Source: an uncultured Erysipelotrichaceae bacterium
Lineage (GTDB): Bacteria; Bacillota_I; Bacilli_A; RFN20; CAG-826
Reading direction: 5' to 3'
DNA: 47,529 nt
Assembly: GCA_902803375.1 (NCBI GenBank)
Contig: CADCPN010000002.1
Coordinates: 1-47,529, forward strand
Shown: positions 4,047 through 41,863 of the stretch, piece by piece
Layout: each line of letters starts with the position of its first letter
Position numbering within the stretch: position 1 is the first letter of the stretch
Made by a program: the position numbers and the translations under genes
The notes under the pieces: generated by a model
Databases searched by the model: none
What the model was told of the DNA's origin: nothing
Seen by the model: only the letters and a program-made list of their open reading frames with translations

Positions 4047-5126
4047 TTATCTCTTACCGTAGAAGGTAGTGGCCGCGGCGACGATATGGCGGTCGCTTTC
4101 ATGGCTGAGGAAGCGAATCGCGTCCTCAGGAAGGACCCAGTGGAGCGAGGAGACTTCCTCTAGCTGTGGCTTGGTCTGCGAGTAGGCAGCCTCGGCGAGG
4201 AAGAAGACGACCTGCTTCACGACTCCGGATTTCGGGGAATAATCCACAGTCTCGCGGAAGCCAGGGATAAAGTTAACCTCAAGGCCTGTCTCTTCTTTGA
4301 TTTCGCGGGCAGCAGTATCAAGTTCATCCTTATCAAAGGATTCCACATGTCCCTTTGGGATGGAGTAATGGCCGGCAGCCATGTGCTCAATAAGGACTTT
4401 GCCTTCATGGAAGACGACGGCACCGCAGGACTTCTCTTGCTTGCCGAGGATATTCTTAAGCATGTAGTACTCATCTTCGCCTAAGCCAATGGCTTCGCAG
4501 TAATGCTCGAAGTCGCCGTATTTCTCCACAAAGGAATTCGCGACGTCTTTAAGGAATTTGATGCTCGGGGTAAGAAGCAATTCTGGGACTTCCGGATGGT
4601 TGGCCCTGGTATCCGCGGTCATTCTGGAAAGAAGAGGGAAGGAAGCCATGTAATCGACGTTGATCTCGTCGAAGTCGACGCCGGCCATACCAAGGAGCAA
4701 AGCGGAGAAGACGCCGGTCCTATCCTTGCCCGCGTTGCAGTGGATAACAAGGGGCTTTTCGGCGTGCATGATCGTGCGGAGAATGGCTCTAGCGGATTCT
4801 GGGTCTTCGACCATCTCCATATAAGACTCAACATATTCGTCATAGTCATGGGCAATGCGGCCGTTTCCGTTCACTTCAAGCTTATAAACGGTGAAACGGG
4901 GGTCGTTTTCCATTGGATCCGGATTTCTAAGCTGAGTCTGCTTGCCACGGATGTCGATGATGGATTTAATGCCGAGGGAGGCCATCTTATCCATATCCGC
5001 CTTGGATGCGTTGCAAAGGGTGGCGCTGCGATAGATCACGCCGAAGCTTGTCTCGCCATATTCGCAGCTATATCCGCCAAGATCGCGGAAGTTTTCGATA
5101 TTCTCTAATTTGATGTGTCTGGGCAT
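4047..5126 (-). CDS. Tyrosine phosphatase-NUDIX hydrolase fusion
   Basis: A 359-residue two-domain protein. Residues 1-230 are a Y_phosphatase3-type (PF13350-like) phosphatase: ENFRDLGGY near the N-terminus, DIRG, and the CX5R loop HCNAGKDRTG with Cys130 and Arg136. Residues 236-359 are a NUDIX hydrolase of the Ap4A-pyrophosphatase type: SIPKGHVES then REIKEETGL. The NUDIX box has one extra residue, and Asp where the first Glu is usual. The natural substrates could be phosphoinositides, phosphotyrosine or nucleotide derivatives. I start at the second ATG (5126): TAGACT lies exactly 6 nt before it, and no Shine-Dalgarno serves the ATG at 5132. It appears monocistronic. Confidence 0.82.
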   Translation of the reverse strand: MPRHIKLENIENFRDLGGYSCEYGETSFGVIYRSATLCNASKADMDKMASLGIKSIIDIRGKQTQLRNPDPMENDPRFTVYKLEVNGNGRIAHDYDEYVESYMEMVEDPESARAILRTIMHAEKPLVIHCNAGKDRTGVFSALLLGMAGVDFDEINVDYMASFPLLSRMTADTRANHPEVPELLLTPSIKFLKDVANSFVEKYGDFEHYCEAIGLGEDEYYMLKNILGKQEKSCGAVVFHEGKVLIEHMAAGHYSIPKGHVESFDKDELDTAAREIKEETGLEVNFIPGFRETVDYSPKSGVVKQVVFFLAEAAYSQTKPQLEEVSSLHWVLPEDAIRFLSHESDRHIVAAATTFYGKR

Positions 5127-5149
5127 GCGCATAGTCTACGTTTAGAAAG

Positions 5150-5184
5150 AGCAAAAGAAAAGCGAGACAAGTAAGCCTCGCTTT
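5150..5184 (-). terminator. mscL terminator
   Basis: On the minus strand AAAGCGAG pairs with CTCGCTTT (5177-5184 with 5159-5166), followed by TTCTTTTGC. It ends the mscL transcript just before the phosphatase promoter. Confidence 0.85.
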
Positions 5185-5205
5185 CGATGAACTTTCCTAC
5201 AGGAA

Positions 5206-5976
5206 TTATTTGGCGGCTTCGGCTTTGGCAGTCGGGGTTTCGCCGTTGGACTTCTTGAGTTCGAGAAGGATGCTAGCAAGGAGTTCTTCCTGAGTCGGCT
5301 TCGGCTTGTCGGGTTGAACCGGTGCCGGGCGCTCTTCCGGATGCTTCTGGTAGTACTTCTCCTGAGCCTCAGCTTCCATGGCAGCGCGCTTGGCGCGGGC
5401 AGCCTGGACGACCTTGACGATGATGAACAAGGTGATGGCAATGATGAAGAAGGAGATGATGGCGTTGATGAAGGAACCCCAGTCGATGACGGCGGACATT
5501 TTATAGGTGAAGGTGGTGCCGTGTAGATCGTAGAGACCTAGAAGGGAGTTCTTCCACTGAGTGAAGTCAGTGTCTTCAACGGTGATGGTCTTGCCCTGAG
5601 CAGCGGCGAACTTGATGACCATGTCATTGACTTCGGCAGTGCTGAACTTCTGAGCATTGTAGGCGACTCCGCCGACGGAGTCAGCGAAGGCAGCGCCAGC
5701 CTGGGCGGTGTTTCCCGGGGCAGCGGGGAGGACGGTGACAAGTCCTTTGATACCACCCGGGACACCCCAGGTAGCGACGCTAAGCAAGATGTTGACTAGC
5801 GCAGTGACGATAGCGTTGAACGCTCCGCCGATGACGACGCCAACGGCCATATCAAAGATATTGCCGCGGAAGATGAACTTCTTGAAGTCGGACCAGATAC
5901 CTTCGTTCTTGGATTTCATCTTCTTTTTTAAAGCTGCTTTTTCAGCTTTTTTCTGTTCTTTTTCTTCCTGTGTCAT
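5206..5976 (-). CDS. mscL: Large-conductance mechanosensitive channel with enlarged loop
   Basis: A 256-residue membrane channel that opens under membrane tension to release solutes on osmotic downshock. Residues about 30-62 are the amphipathic N-terminus and TM1 ([22 protein letters not shown]), and about 165-195 is TM2 ([21 protein letters not shown]), both clearly MscL. The segment between them is about 100 residues, against roughly 30 in E. coli MscL (136 residues in total), and is Ala/Gly-rich. A Lys-rich N-terminal extension of 25 residues and a Pro-rich acidic C-terminal tail add further length. AGGAGG (5987-5992) lies 10 nt before the ATG; TATAAC (6000-6005) is a likely -10. Confidence 0.9.
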
Positions 5977-6052: not shown

Positions 6053-6456
6053 CCTTCCGTTATCGGATTTATTACACTTCTCGTTTTACGTAAAAGAAAA
6101 GTTGCAATTACCCCAATAAAGCCATCTAAGGTCATTGGTTTATCGCTTGGCATCTTGGCCTTAGTCTGCTCTGGCGTAGGCATGGGAACGTTGGTCGGCG
6201 GCAAAACCAAAAGCAATAAAAGCGCGGATTGAATGGCAGGCCTTAACGACTCGGCCAAGTTAGCCAACGTCTCTCTTCCGGGCAGCCATGACACGATGGC
6301 CCTATATTCCCTAGCCGACGTCGCCAAAGGTATGAATAAAACATGTCTTCATTGTTAGAAGGCAAATCGGGCTGTGAAATTGTCATTCCGAATTTCGCCA
6401 CATCTTCTTTAGCCAAAAAGATAATCGATGCCAACCGTGAGGGAGGGCCGCTATGA
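6053..6456 (+). pseudogene. Broken PI-phospholipase-C-like gene with N-terminal membrane segment
   Basis: One frame reads through 6053-6355: a Lys/Arg-rich stretch, a membrane segment (VIGLSLGILALVCSGVGMG), an in-frame TGA at 6230, then MAGLNDSAKLANVSLPGSHD followed by TMALYSLADVA. NVSLPGSHDTM matches the catalytic His region of PI-PLC X-domain proteins, and a Trp codon (TGG) would be expected at the TGA. After a frame change near 6343-6356 the sequence continues as GCEIVIPNFATSSLAKKIID to a TGA at 6454, which resembles the C-terminus of such enzymes. About 200 residues of the barrel are missing. No start codon survives. It ends in an ATGA overlap with the next gene. Confidence 0.6.
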
Positions 6457-7983: not shown

Positions 7984-8140
7984 TTTGCAAATAAAAAAAG
8001 TCTTTATAACATATACTGCGCATACTCCTTTTAGGAGCAAAGCATCGCCACATAGCTGAAGAGCACAGGGATGGTTTCAAGGGAGAGCCGACCTTCTATT
8101 CAGCTATCCACACACACACATGTAGGGAGGAAGGATCCAA
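7984..8140 (+). promoter_or_regulatory. nrdD promoter region and structured leader
   Basis: The 440 bases between the CvpA-like terminator and nrdD hold no gene. TTGCAA (7984-7989) and TATAAC/TATACT boxes near 8004-8018 could be the promoter. Downstream, CTCC-TTTTA-GGAG forms a small hairpin. ATAGCTGAA (8052-8060) and TTCAGCTAT (8099-8107) make a perfect 9-bp stem around 38 nt, which itself contains GGTT/AGCC and AAGG/CCTT pairings. A CA repeat and the strong ribosome site AGGGAGGAAGG (8124-8134) follow. CCTTC inside the stem could pair with GAAGG of the ribosome site. I do not recognise a known riboswitch and saw no NrdR box pair. Confidence 0.5.
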
Positions 8141-8142
8141 TT

Positions 8143-10512
8143 ATGTTGCAAGTTGCAAAACGCGACGGCTCGCTTGTGCCGTTCGACCTCAAGAAAATCG
8201 AGAACGCGATGGGACGCGCTTTCTCCGCTGAACACGTCGATGTCCCCGCTGATGTCCTAGAGCTTCTCGCTCTCCGCGTCACCAGCAATATCAACCACAA
8301 GATCAAGAACGAGGTCATCTCCGTCGAAGACATTCAGGACTCCGTTGAAGTCGTTCTCATTCAGACCGGCTATGTGGAAGTTGCCAAGTCCTATATGGAT
8401 TACCGTTCCAAGAGGAGCGCCATCCGCAACGTCAAATCCACCAACCTCGACTTCAAGAAGACCGTCGATAACTACCTTCGCGTCGCCGACTGGCGCGTTA
8501 AGGAGAACTCCACCGTCACCTATTCCGTCGGCGGACTTATCCTTTCCAACTCAGGCGCCGTCACCGCGAATTATTGGCTAAGCGAAGTCTACGATAAGGA
8601 GATCAGCGATGCCCACCGCAATGCGGATATCCACATCCATGATCTTTCCATGCTCACCGGCTACTGCGCTGGCTGGAGCTTGAAACAGCTCATCAAGGAA
8701 GGCCTCGGCGGCGTCCCGGGCAAGATTACCTCCGCTCCGGCAAAACACCTTATGACCCTCTGCAACCAGATGGTCAACTTCCTTGGCATCATGCAGAACG
8801 AATGGGCCGGCGCTCAGGCTTTCTCCTCCTTCGATACTTATCTTGCTCCGTTTGTCAAAGTCGACCACCTCACCTATAAAGAGGTTAAGCAGTGCATCCA
8901 GTCCTTCATCTTCGGGGTCAATACGCCGTCTCGTTGGGGCACCCAATCTCCGTTCACCAACGTCACCTTAGATTGGACCTGCCCTGAAGACATGGTCAAT
9001 CTCCCAGCCCTCGTCGGCGGTAAGGAAATGGACTTCACCTACGGCGATTGCAAAGAAGAAATGGCCATGGTCAACAAAGCCTTCATCGAGACCATGATCG
9101 AAGGCGATGCCAATGGACGTGGCTTCCAGTATCCGATCCCGACCTATTCCATCACCAAAGACTTCGACTGGTCCGCGACCGAGAACAATAAGCTTCTCTT
9201 CACGATGACCGCCAAATACGGCACCCCGTACTTCAGCAACTACATCAACAGCGACATGAAGCCGAGCGATGTCCGCTCCATGTGCTGCCGTCTCCGTCTC
9301 GACCTCCGCGAACTCCGCAAGAAGTCCGGCGGCTACTTCGGCTCTGGCGAATCCACCGGCTCCGTCGGTGTCGTCACCATCAACATGCCGCGCATCGCTT
9401 ATCTAGCCACCGACAAGGCTGACTTCTATGCCCGTCTAGACAAGCTAATGGATATCTCTGCCCGTTCCCTCAAGATCAAGCGCGACACCATCACCAAGCT
9501 TCTTGAGGCCGGCCTATATCCGTACACCAAACATTATCTCGGCTCCTTCAAGAACCACTTCTCCACCATCGGCCTCGTCGGCATGAACGAAGCCTGCCTC
9601 AATGCCCGTTGGATTAAAGAAGACCTCACCCATGAGGCTGCCCAGGAATTCACCAAGGAAGTCCTCAACCACATGAGGGAAAGACTCTCCGACTACCAGG
9701 AGAAGTATGGCGACCTCTATAACCTAGAAGCCACCCCAGCCGAATCCACCTCCTTCCGTCTTGCCAAGCACGACAAAGAGACCTATCCGGACATTATCAC
9801 CGCCTCCAAAGACGGCGAGACCCCGTTCTACACCAACTCCAGCCACTTGCCGGTCGGCTATACCGATGACATCTTCAATGCCCTCGATATCGAAGATCAG
9901 TTCCAGACTCTCTACACCTCTGGCACCGTCTTCCATGCCTTCCTCGGTCAGAGGCTCCCGAGCTGGGAATCCTGCATGAAGCTCGTCAGGAAGATCGCCG
10001 AGAACTACAAACTCCCGTATTACACCATGTCGCCGACCTATTCCGTCTGCGAAGACCATGGCTACCTCACCGGCGAGCAGTGGAAGTGCCCAATCTGCGG
10101 CAAGGAGACCGAAGTCTACTCCCGCATCACCGGCTATTACCGTCCGATTAAGAACTGGAACGCAGGCAAGACGCAGGAATTCAAGATGAGAAAGACTTAC
10201 GTCTATAGCGATTCCGATGCTCCGAAGGCAGAGCACCGCTGCTGTGAAGAGCAAAAGAAGAAAGCGGCCCCAAAGGTCACCGAACTCCTCCTCTTCACCT
10301 CCCCGACCTGCCCGAACTGTAAGATGGCCAAGATGCTTCTCGATAAGAGCGGCCTTCACTACAACAACCTCGATGCTTTGCAAAACCGCGAGCTCACCGA
10401 GGCCTACGGCATCAAGCAGGCCCCGACCCTTCTTGTTCCGGAAGGTGACGGCTATAGAGCCTACGACAACGCCTCCCTCATCAAGGGATACATCGAATCC
10501 ACCAAAAAGTAA
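8143..10512 (+). CDS. nrdD: Anaerobic (class III) ribonucleoside-triphosphate reductase with C-terminal glutaredoxin domain
   Basis: A 789-residue oxygen-sensitive glycyl-radical enzyme that makes deoxynucleotides from NTPs. Residues 1-95 are the ATP-cone allosteric domain (VAKRDGSLVPFDLKKIE). The catalytic barrel follows. Near the C-terminus are CEDH and CPIC (Cys649, Cys652), likely the zinc site, and then the radical loop RITGYYRPIKNWNAGKT with Gly664. Residues about 710-789 are an added glutaredoxin/NrdH-like domain with CPNC (Cys723, Cys726) and a cis-Pro (QAPTLLV). This suggests electrons come from a redoxin rather than formate. I start at ATG 8143 because of AGGGAGGAAGG just upstream; the frame is open to 8071 but that covers the leader. 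Confidence 0.95.
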   Translation: MLQVAKRDGSLVPFDLKKIENAMGRAFSAEHVDVPADVLELLALRVTSNINHKIKNEVISVEDIQDSVEVVLIQTGYVEVAKSYMDYRSKRSAIRNVKSTNLDFKKTVDNYLRVADWRVKENSTVTYSVGGLILSNSGAVTANYWLSEVYDKEISDAHRNADIHIHDLSMLTGYCAGWSLKQLIKEGLGGVPGKITSAPAKHLMTLCNQMVNFLGIMQNEWAGAQAFSSFDTYLAPFVKVDHLTYKEVKQCIQSFIFGVNTPSRWGTQSPFTNVTLDWTCPEDMVNLPALVGGKEMDFTYGDCKEEMAMVNKAFIETMIEGDANGRGFQYPIPTYSITKDFDWSATENNKLLFTMTAKYGTPYFSNYINSDMKPSDVRSMCCRLRLDLRELRKKSGGYFGSGESTGSVGVVTINMPRIAYLATDKADFYARLDKLMDISARSLKIKRDTITKLLEAGLYPYTKHYLGSFKNHFSTIGLVGMNEACLNARWIKEDLTHEAAQEFTKEVLNHMRERLSDYQEKYGDLYNLEATPAESTSFRLAKHDKETYPDIITASKDGETPFYTNSSHLPVGYTDDIFNALDIEDQFQTLYTSGTVFHAFLGQRLPSWESCMKLVRKIAENYKLPYYTMSPTYSVCEDHGYLTGEQWKCPICGKETEVYSRITGYYRPIKNWNAGKTQEFKMRKTYVYSDSDAPKAEHRCCEEQKKKAAPKVTELLLFTSPTCPNCKMAKMLLDKSGLHYNNLDALQNRELTEAYGIKQAPTLLVPEGDGYRAYDNASLIKGYIESTKK

Positions 10513-40816: not shown

Positions 40817-41863
40817 TCAGCACTCAATCTGAGAGACGCGGCGATGATGTTTTTCCTCAACGGAGAATTTCTCGCTTAGGAAGATATCCACGCGGCGGAG
40901 AACATCTTCTTCCTTCATGTATTTGGCGCCAAAGGAGACCATGTTCGCGTTGTTGTGGCTGCGGGTTTTACCCGTTGCGTCATCGTCATACCCCATGCCG
41001 CAGCGGATGCCATGGACCTTATTGGCGGTGATCATAACGCCCTCGCCGGAGGTGCAGCAGACGATGCCTAGCTCAGCGGAGCCATTGGCGACGTCTTGGG
41101 CGGCCTTTCTAGCGAACTCAGGATAGTCACAGGAGAAGGTGTTGAAGGTGCCTTCGTCCAAGACTTTGATGCCCATGCATTCCAGGTGTTTCACGATGTT
41201 CTCCTTCAAGAAGAAAGCGCCGTGGTCACAGCCAATGGAAACAGTCATCTTCGCTTGATCGGCAACTGCTTTAATCTCGGCGAACGGGATAGGCCCTTCT
41301 CTCACCAAAGAGATTTCGGGGCCACCCATGTTAACGATGGTAGAAGCCTGCATCGAGGTGCATTCGCCTTTAATGATGGCGGGAACCTCGGATTTGAAGA
41401 CCTCATAGGTCTGCTCAAACGTGGTGGAAGTCAGCTCGCCGGAGATATTGGCGGAGGGAACAAGCAGCGGAGCACCAACCTTATCGATAAGGTCGAGGAG
41501 CTCTTTGCTGTCCGGGACGCGGACCCCGATGAGTGGGGTGCCAAGGGTGACCCATTCCGGAAGGCCAGGTCTTGCCTTCAATAGCAAGGTGATTTGGCCA
41601 GGCATGTACTTCTTCATGACGGCGATGGACCTAACGTCCACCTCTGCATAGCGGGCGACGTCTGCTAGGCAAGAGCACATCAAGGTAAAGGGCTTGGTCG
41701 GCGGGCGACGTTTGATCTTCGCAAGCTTCTCAAACGCCTCTTTCTTCGTAGAGATCGCACCCATTCCGTAGACGGTCTCAGTCGGGAAGCAGACGACCTC
41801 CCCTTCTTGAAGAAGCTTTACGGCCTCTTCCTTGTTTTTCCATTCCAGAACTTTGGTTTCCAT
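40817..41863 (-). CDS. TsaC/Sua5 (YrdC) and RpiB fusion protein
   Basis: A 348-residue two-domain protein. Residues 1-205 are a YrdC/TsaC domain making threonylcarbamoyl-AMP for the t6A tRNA modification: CFPTETVYGMGA, KIKRRPPTKPFTL (the KxR ATP site) and PSANISGE. Residues 207-348 are a RpiB/LacAB-type sugar-phosphate isomerase (SIGCDHGAFFLKENIVKHLE, VCCTSGEGVMITANKVHGIR, HNNANMVSFG). In Bacillus the two are separate neighbours (ywlC, ywlF). The join at about 206 has no linker. AAGGAG precedes the start, inside the end of prmC. Confidence 0.9.
   Translation of the reverse strand: METKVLEWKNKEEAVKLLQEGEVVCFPTETVYGMGAISTKKEAFEKLAKIKRRPPTKPFTLMCSCLADVARYAEVDVRSIAVMKKYMPGQITLLLKARPGLPEWVTLGTPLIGVRVPDSKELLDLIDKVGAPLLVPSANISGELTSTTFEQTYEVFKSEVPAIIKGECTSMQASTIVNMGGPEISLVREGPIPFAEIKAVADQAKMTVSIGCDHGAFFLKENIVKHLECMGIKVLDEGTFNTFSCDYPEFARKAAQDVANGSAELGIVCCTSGEGVMITANKVHGIRCGMGYDDDATGKTRSHNNANMVSFGAKYMKEEDVLRRVDIFLSEKFSVEEKHHRRVSQIEC

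What the first reader, a model, noticed from the sequence alone, without database searches (positions are those of the whole stretch)
4047..5126. Tyrosine phosphatase fused to a NUDIX hydrolase
Both active sites look usable (HCNAGKDRTG; REIKEETGL), though the NUDIX box has an extra residue and Asp for the first Glu. The two activities would act on phosphoesters and on pyrophosphates, so a common substrate such as an inositol (pyro)phosphate or a dinucleotide is conceivable. A PI-PLC remnant lies 1 kb away, but a functional link is speculation.
Basis: partly seen in the sequence, partly recalled or inferred. Interest (0 to 1): 0.5.

Follow-up and report, generated by a model that had tools for sequence, protein, structure and literature searches.

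The report
Phosphatase fused to Ap4A-hydrolase-like NUDIX enzyme
In two related groups of uncultured bacteria, one gene joins a phosphatase to an enzyme that resembles those destroying the stress nucleotide Ap4A; the fusion is real and inherited, but a few relatives have lost one half or the other, so the two halves do not seem to need each other.

Summary
Window 4047-5126 (-) (5132 with the first ATG) is one intact gene: an atypical lipid/tyrosine phosphatase domain (PF13350), then a NUDIX domain. It is not a joining error: the fusion is intact in 43 genomes, 25 of 31 in the window's genus (g1; one more is cut by a contig end) and 18 of 37 in genus g50. No full-length match was listed in the other 211 genomes of the order. 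The P-loop HCxxGKDRTG and NUDIX RE..EE are kept in 43 of 43. The odd NUDIX box is fixed in this lineage (Asp in 42 of 43), and also occurs in 2 of 29 standalone relatives, so it is neither a defect nor unique to the fusion. The NUDIX half resembles Ap4A/ApnA hydrolases most; the phosphatase half resembles M. tuberculosis PtpB and a C. difficile PTP. A common substrate is not supported: at the same locus three genomes keep the NUDIX but lack the phosphatase site, and one keeps only the phosphatase. Inositol-phosphate synthase and kinase families were not found (0 of 31 each). Best reading: a lineage-specific fusion of two separately useful enzymes, a new variant of known kinds.

The parts
4047..5126 (-). 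fusion gene (alternative first ATG at 5132; residue numbers in this report count from 5132)
4446..5114 (-). phosphatase domain, PF13350, residues 7-229
   Evidence: fold match to 1ywf over residues 7-230, Z 23.5
4713..4742 (-). phosphatase P-loop HCNAGKDRTG, residues 131-140
   Evidence: HC..GKDRTG in 43 of 43 fusions
4080..4424 (-). NUDIX domain, PF00293, residues 237-351
   Evidence: fold matches to ApnA-acting NUDIX enzymes over residues 230-361
4281..4352 (-). modified NUDIX box, residues 261-284: Asp267 in place of the first Glu and one extra residue; R276 E277 E280 E281 kept
4239..4241 (-). Tyr298, aligned with the adenine-contacting tyrosine of human Ap4A hydrolase; Tyr in 39, Phe in 4 of 43
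5206..5976 (-). mscL (long form, 256 aa), next gene upstream on the same strand; kept there in 23 of 25 g1 loci and 21 of 22 g50 loci examined besides the window
5158..5185 (-). terminator-like hairpin between mscL and the fusion gene (weak: 4 such sites in the region, 4.9 expected from shuffles)

Best explanation
One protein, probably cytosolic, carries two enzymes joined by what is most simply one gene fusion in the ancestry of genera g1 and g50. Shown by computation: an N-terminal phosphatase of the MptpB/LipA kind (atypical lipid phosphatase) with an intact P-loop, and a C-terminal NUDIX domain of the Ap4A (ApnA) hydrolase kind with intact metal ligands. Inferred from the families: the NUDIX half cuts Ap4A-like dinucleotides asymmetrically to ATP + AMP with divalent metal; the phosphatase half uses Cys132 as nucleophile, Asp137 as general acid, and Lys136/Arg138 to hold the phosphate of a separate phosphomonoester (a phosphoprotein or a small molecule). 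Inferred from natural losses: the activities do not depend on each other. The fusion would then serve co-expression or common regulation, perhaps with mscL, rather than substrate channelling.
For: NUDIX half: the leading solved relatives by sequence are CT771, Aquifex Ap4A hydrolase, human NUDT2 and Ndx1. In the fold comparison Ap4A/Ap6A hydrolases and MutT1/Rv2985 fill ranks 5-22 (Z 19.5-21.6); four more Ap4A-hydrolase entries and CT771 apo lie at 17.6-18.2, and the other NUDIX entries of the 50 rows shown at 17.6 or less. The ApnA tyrosine is present: residue 87 of human Ap4A hydrolase in 1XSC (PMC5389931, passages) aligns with Y298 (the shift of 5 between 3u53 and 1xsa numbering is my own count). 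Phosphatase half: PF13350, P-loop HCXXGKDR[TA]G as defined in PMC3091653 (passages), PtpB Z 23.5. One origin: the NUDIX domains of 43 fusions and 3 decayed proteins lie on one side of a branch, 29 standalone ones on the other (100/99; the same with 39 fusions). Independence: P-loop lost but NUDIX kept in G257, G270, G266; NUDIX missing in G237 at the same slot. Related NUDIX domains in the order are joined to other partners: GDPD, GNAT, PF04227, Vsr.
Against: No assay exists. The canonical first Glu is Asp in 42 of 43, so catalysis or substrate may have shifted. Of the 48 loci of the two genera that hold any part of this gene, 43 keep both active sites, 1 is cut by a contig end and only 4 show a loss, so keeping both halves is the common state. 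In the phosphatase tree the 43 fused rows do not form one side of a branch: standalone phosphatases of G237, G273, G063 and G065 fall among them (5 label changes, the contig-cut G012 being labelled standalone), which could also mean repeated fusion; the shared NUDIX clade and shared locus speak for one. YqeK, a symmetric Ap4A hydrolase, matches in 255 of 279 genomes, own included, so the NUDIX half is not needed for Ap4A clearance as such.
Confidence: 0.6

Rival explanations
1. Sequential enzyme: the NUDIX half cleaves a dinucleotide, nucleotide sugar or RNA 5' cap and the phosphatase half then removes the phosphate that is exposed (for example from AMP).
For: Both active sites are kept in 43 of 43 intact fusions. 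Mycobacterial MutT1 is a separate NUDIX-phosphatase fusion (NUDIX + histidine phosphatase) that also acts on diadenosine polyphosphates (PMC11784022, passages; fold match).
Against: Either half is lost on its own at the same locus. In MutT1 the mutation of the RHG motif did not affect the phosphatase activity tested, so that precedent does not show channelling.
Confidence: 0.12
2. Shared inositol (pyro)phosphate enzyme: both halves remove phosphates from an inositol phosphate.
For: Atypical lipid phosphatases act on phosphoinositides (PMC3091653, passages) and one member uses InsP6 (PMC6409689, abstract). Yeast DDP1, a NUDIX enzyme, takes both diphosphoinositides and dinucleotides (PMC8064635, start of abstract in listings).
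Against: PF01658 0 of 31 and PF03770 0 of 31 (controls rang in 6 and 1 of 14). No entry named as a diphosphoinositol phosphohydrolase is among the listed sequence matches, which is not an exclusion. Either half is lost alone. No signal peptide is apparent at the N-terminus (read by eye, not tested), so dietary phytate is an unlikely substrate.
Confidence: 0.05
3. The NUDIX half is not an Ap4A hydrolase but a NUDIX of other specificity (8-oxo-NTP, capped RNA), altered by the Asp and the extra residue.
For: The box change is nearly fixed in the fused lineage (41-42 of 43). The top NCBIfam hit is MutT1 8-oxo-(d)GTP phosphatase, far under its cut-off (38.4 of 475 bits), and MutT1 ranks with Ap4A hydrolases by fold.
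Against: REUXEE and the ApnA tyrosine are kept. Two standalone relatives have the same kind of box change, so it need not go with a new role.
Confidence: 0.2

Closest known systems
Atypical lipid phosphatases, MptpB/LipA kind (PF13350; PDB 1ywf, 8dhi)
   Same: whole domain, P-loop HCXXGKDR[TA]G, fold
   Different: no apparent signal peptide (by eye) and joined to NUDIX; activity untested
Asymmetric Ap4A hydrolase, NUDT2 / Aquifex aq_158 / Chlamydia CT771
   Same: fold, RE..EE, X-loop tyrosine, PKGH.E stretch
   Different: first box Glu is Asp, one extra residue in the box, N-terminal phosphatase domain
Mycobacterial MutT1 / Rv2985
   Same: a NUDIX acting on ApnA joined to a phosphatase domain in one protein
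   Different: MutT1 has the NUDIX first and a histidine phosphatase; here a Cys phosphatase comes first
Yeast Siw14 / plant PFA-DSP phosphatases
   Same: Cys-phosphatase superfamily, weak sequence match (6byf, 1xri)
   Different: PF03162 is under its cut-off (16.2 of 27 bits); that PF03162 stands for these enzymes is recalled

Membership tests
Atypical lipid phosphatase (MptpB/LipA kind) | P-loop HCXXGKDR[TA]G | tested here: met
   HCNAGKDRTG; 43 of 43 fusions; definition from PMC3091653, passages
Atypical lipid phosphatase (MptpB/LipA kind) | Pfam PF13350 above gathering score and MptpB fold | tested here: met
   149.9 bits against 22.2; 1ywf Z 23.5, rmsd 2.6, 215 aligned
Atypical lipid phosphatase (MptpB/LipA kind) | phosphoprotein and phosphoinositide phosphatase activity | not testable with these tools
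   needs purified protein
Asymmetric Ap4A hydrolase (NUDT2 kind) | canonical NUDIX box GX5EX7REUXEEXGU | tested here: not met
   REUXEEXGU met, but Asp for the first Glu and X8 for X7; so it is called Ap4A-hydrolase-like, not a proven member
Asymmetric Ap4A hydrolase (NUDT2 kind) | X-loop tyrosine that contacts adenine | tested here: met
   Y298; Tyr 39, Phe 4 of 43; alignment with the human enzyme; role from PMC5389931, passages
Asymmetric Ap4A hydrolase (NUDT2 kind) | fold ranks with ApnA-acting NUDIX enzymes | tested here: met
   Z 20.3-21.6 for 1vc8, 3i7u, 4ijx, 4mpo, 1ktg, 3u53; MutT1/Rv2985 entries (19.5-20.7) overlap them, so fold does not tell the two apart
Asymmetric Ap4A hydrolase (NUDT2 kind) | hydrolysis of Ap4A to ATP + AMP | not testable with these tools
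   needs assay
MutT1 (NUDIX + histidine phosphatase) | C-terminal RHG histidine phosphatase domain | tested here: not met
   no such domain in the Pfam scan; NF052459 38.4 of 475 bits
Siw14/PFA-DSP inositol pyrophosphate phosphatase | PF03162 over its cut-off | tested here: not met
   16.2 of 27 bits
Diphosphoinositol polyphosphate phosphohydrolase (NUDT3/DDP1 kind) | close sequence relation | tested here: inconclusive
   no entry so named among the listed matches, where ApnA hydrolases lead

The most novel reading that the evidence does not exclude
An alarmone-controlled phosphatase: binding or turnover of Ap4A in the NUDIX half gates the phosphatase half, in a stress operon with the mechanosensitive channel gene mscL. 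The forms that lost the phosphatase site would be relics that keep only the alarmone-clearing role.
Probability: 0.06. Interest if true: 0.7.

Novelty: new variant of a known kind. Interest (0 to 1): 0.35.

Why it matters
It is a second joining of an ApnA-type NUDIX to a phosphatase (MutT1 being the other), with a phosphatase of another class and in reverse order. Nature supplies the controls: orthologues at the same locus with both sites, with the NUDIX site only, and with the phosphatase only. That makes the question of what such fusions are for testable by comparing orthologues. If the phosphatase proves to respond to Ap4A, it would link this nucleotide to dephosphorylation in Bacilli.

Tried and rejected
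Sequencing or assembly error joining two genes: rejected (43 intact fusions without internal stop).

NUDIX half replaces a missing YqeK: rejected. YqeK matches in 255 of 279 genomes of the order (248 over the cut-off), own included.

27 of 29 standalone relatives are canonical, but G159 and G155 (genus g40) have Asp with one and two extra residues. Of the other g40 standalone genes only that of G167 was read (canonical).

A tyrosine-kinase partner: the BY-kinase model TIGR01007 passes its cut-off in 4 of 31 genomes, none of them among the 19 of genus g1. This weakens, but does not exclude, a phosphotyrosine role; other kinases were not searched.

Fusions elsewhere: none added in drawn samples of 395 (class) and 392 (phylum) genomes at E <= 1e-42. 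The samples overlap the order set; a divergent fusion under that threshold, or one with the domains reversed, could be missed.

Fold of the decayed N-terminal domain (model of G257 with 3 sequences, mean pLDDT 74.6): the 50 PDB rows shown are led by NUDIX enzymes, so whether a phosphatase fold remains is open.

Papers: four searches aimed at such a fusion listed no paper whose title or abstract start describes a PTP-NUDIX fusion; the held library is partial. The main text of PMC5389931, a survey of the Nudix clan, has no hit for 'tyrosine phosphatase' or 'fused'. A search for the paper behind 8DHI gave nothing relevant.

Rows dropped: A1 holds 23 of the 26 g1 fusions (a near-copy, one with a long N-terminal read-through, and the contig-end one left out). 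The trees lack 4 g50 fusions because a script did not find the cut point; one search repeats them with all 43. In both, the contig-cut G012 is labelled standalone in the phosphatase tree. Two fetched loci with standalone or partial matches (L057, L059) were not put into. The box pattern returned none for some rows by its own limits; replace it. Residue labels of the table are shifted by 2; one search corrects them. The match list was cut, so 14 g50 genomes are known only to have weaker or no matches.

Full report
What is there. The finding is one open reading frame on the minus strand, 4047-5132 (361 aa; 359 aa from the second ATG at 5126). Pfam gives PF13350 Y_phosphatase3 over residues 7-229 (E 1.5e-43) and PF00293 NUDIX over 237-351 (E 2.4e-12). 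A model from 23 sequences is confident (mean pLDDT 94.6, pTM 0.89).

It is a real, inherited fusion. Full-length relatives without internal stops are found in 25 of 31 genomes of the window's genus g1 (own included; a 26th, G012, is cut by its contig end) and in 18 of 37 genomes of genus g50 in the same family. In the remaining 211 of the 279 genomes searched in the order no full-length match was listed. Samples of 395 genomes of the class and 392 of the phylum added none at E <= 1e-42 (they overlap the order set).

Both active sites are under constraint. Over the 43 intact fusions H131, C132, G135, K136, D137, R138, T139 and G140 are invariant, and so are G261, H262, E264, R276, E277, E280 and E281. 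Asp267 stands in place of the first Glu of the NUDIX box in 42 of 43 (Glu in G002). The spacing from Gly to Arg is one longer than canonical in 41, two longer in G269, canonical in G002. Of 29 standalone relatives 27 have the canonical box, but two of genus g40 have Asp with one (G159) or two (G155) extra residues. Mean pairwise identity is 45.7% for the phosphatase half and 51.5% for the NUDIX half (903 pairs, r = 0.51).

One fusion, then losses. The NUDIX domains of the 43 fusions and of 3 decayed proteins lie on one side of a branch and 29 standalone ones on the other (support 100/99; few columns). The phosphatase tree is less clear: standalone phosphatases of G237, G273, G063 and G065 lie among fused ones (bootstrap supports 88-95), as expected if the NUDIX half was lost or the phosphatase moved, though repeated fusion is not excluded by that tree alone. 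mscL lies upstream on the same strand in the window, in 23 of 25 other g1 loci, and in 21 of 22 g50 loci, counting G258 where the two matches overlap slightly; of the three others two end at a contig end (G003, G244) and one differs (G018). The RimK-like gene lies downstream in 15 of those 25 g1 loci (a 16th, G003) and in 20 of 22 g50 loci. At that same slot G257, G270 and G266 have a shortened N-terminal part without HCxxGKDRTG and without a PF13350 match, but with a NUDIX box like that of the fusions. G237 has the phosphatase alone; no NUDIX match lies between it and the RimK-like gene about 300 bases on. Each half has therefore been kept without the other. Of the 48 loci in the two genera that hold any part of this gene, 43 keep both sites, 1 is contig-cut and 4 show a loss.

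What the halves resemble. NUDIX: by sequence the leading solved relatives are CT771, Aquifex Ap4A hydrolase, human NUDT2 and Ndx1. By fold, the rows after the phosphatases are Ap4A/Ap6A hydrolases and MutT1/Rv2985 (Z 19.5-21.6), with the other NUDIX entries shown at 17.6 or less and five further Ap4A-hydrolase/CT771 entries at 17.6-18.2. Y298 aligns with the tyrosine that contacts adenine in human Ap4A hydrolase. Such enzymes cut Ap4A to ATP and AMP (PMC10148737, passages). Phosphatase: PtpB of M. tuberculosis (Z 23.5) and a C. difficile PTP (Z 22.6). The P-loop is the diagnostic one of atypical lipid phosphatases, in which the Asp is needed for catalysis and the Lys for substrate binding (PMC3091653, passages).

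Why not one substrate. Besides the losses, no inositol-1-phosphate synthase (PF01658) or inositol phosphate kinase (PF03770) was found in 31 genomes (controls rang in 6 and 1 of 14). BY-kinases pass the cut-off in 4 of 31 genomes, none in g1. Related NUDIX domains in the order are joined to other things: GDPD in G071, GNAT in G092, PF04227 in G082 (pseudouridine-5'-phosphate glycosidase, recalled), Vsr in G063. The window itself has two more fusions, NrdD-glutaredoxin and Sua5-RpiB. Gene joining thus looks common here, and a fusion alone is weak evidence for a shared pathway. YqeK, a symmetric Ap4A hydrolase, matches in 255 of 279 genomes, so the NUDIX half does not fill a gap.

Mechanism and confidence. 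I hold it most likely (0.6) that this is a bifunctional protein with two separate hydrolytic activities, the NUDIX half acting on ApnA. Motifs and folds are shown; the activities, the substrates and the reason for the fusion are inferred. Steady linkage to mscL suggests co-expression, but a terminator-like hairpin lies between the two genes in the window (such sites are no commoner there than in shuffles), and shared descent alone can explain the linkage.

Novelty. Both domains are known kinds; the combination is a new variant as far as four searches of a partial library show. The nearest parallel is mycobacterial MutT1, NUDIX plus histidine phosphatase (PMC11784022, passages).

Noticed in passing
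window 8071-10512 (+): Anaerobic ribonucleotide reductase NrdD with an ATP-cone and a C-terminal glutaredoxin domain (PF00462, E 1.6e-7), followed by a TrxB-like gene; suggests a built-in electron donor.
   Followed up: partly
window 40817-41863 (-): Sua5/YrdC domain fused to a ribose-5-phosphate isomerase B domain in one ORF (PF01300 and PF02502).
   Followed up: partly
window 5206-5976 (-): MscL is 256 aa, with two separate matches to the MscL model, i.e. with extra sequence; ORFs of this family of 196-272 aa stand in 20 loci.
   Followed up: partly
window about 6233-6456 (+): PI-PLC-like fragments in two frames beside mscL, recognised by eye; PF00388 has no match in the own genome and passes its cut-off in 10 of 31 genomes sampled, all in g1.
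   Followed up: partly
G257, G270, G266 (L066 4734-5558 -, L065 4660-5505 +, L067 4538-5368 +): Orthologues with a decayed phosphatase domain: the P-loop is gone, the NUDIX box is kept.
   Followed up: yes
G159 (L111 1474-1932 +) and G155 (L112 1483-1962 +): Standalone NUDIX genes of genus g40 with Asp and one or two extra residues in the box, like the fused ones but outside their clade.
   Followed up: partly
own genome G000:C8:27210-27674 (-): The YqeK match lies in a 416-aa open frame, as in many relatives, which suggests a fusion with another domain, perhaps NadD (partner not checked).
   Followed up: no
L077 2078-3238, L075 2596-3549, L080 3331-4686, L072 3844-4698: Ap4A-hydrolase-like NUDIX domains joined to GDPD, GNAT, PF04227 and Vsr domains in other genera of the order.
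   Followed up: partly
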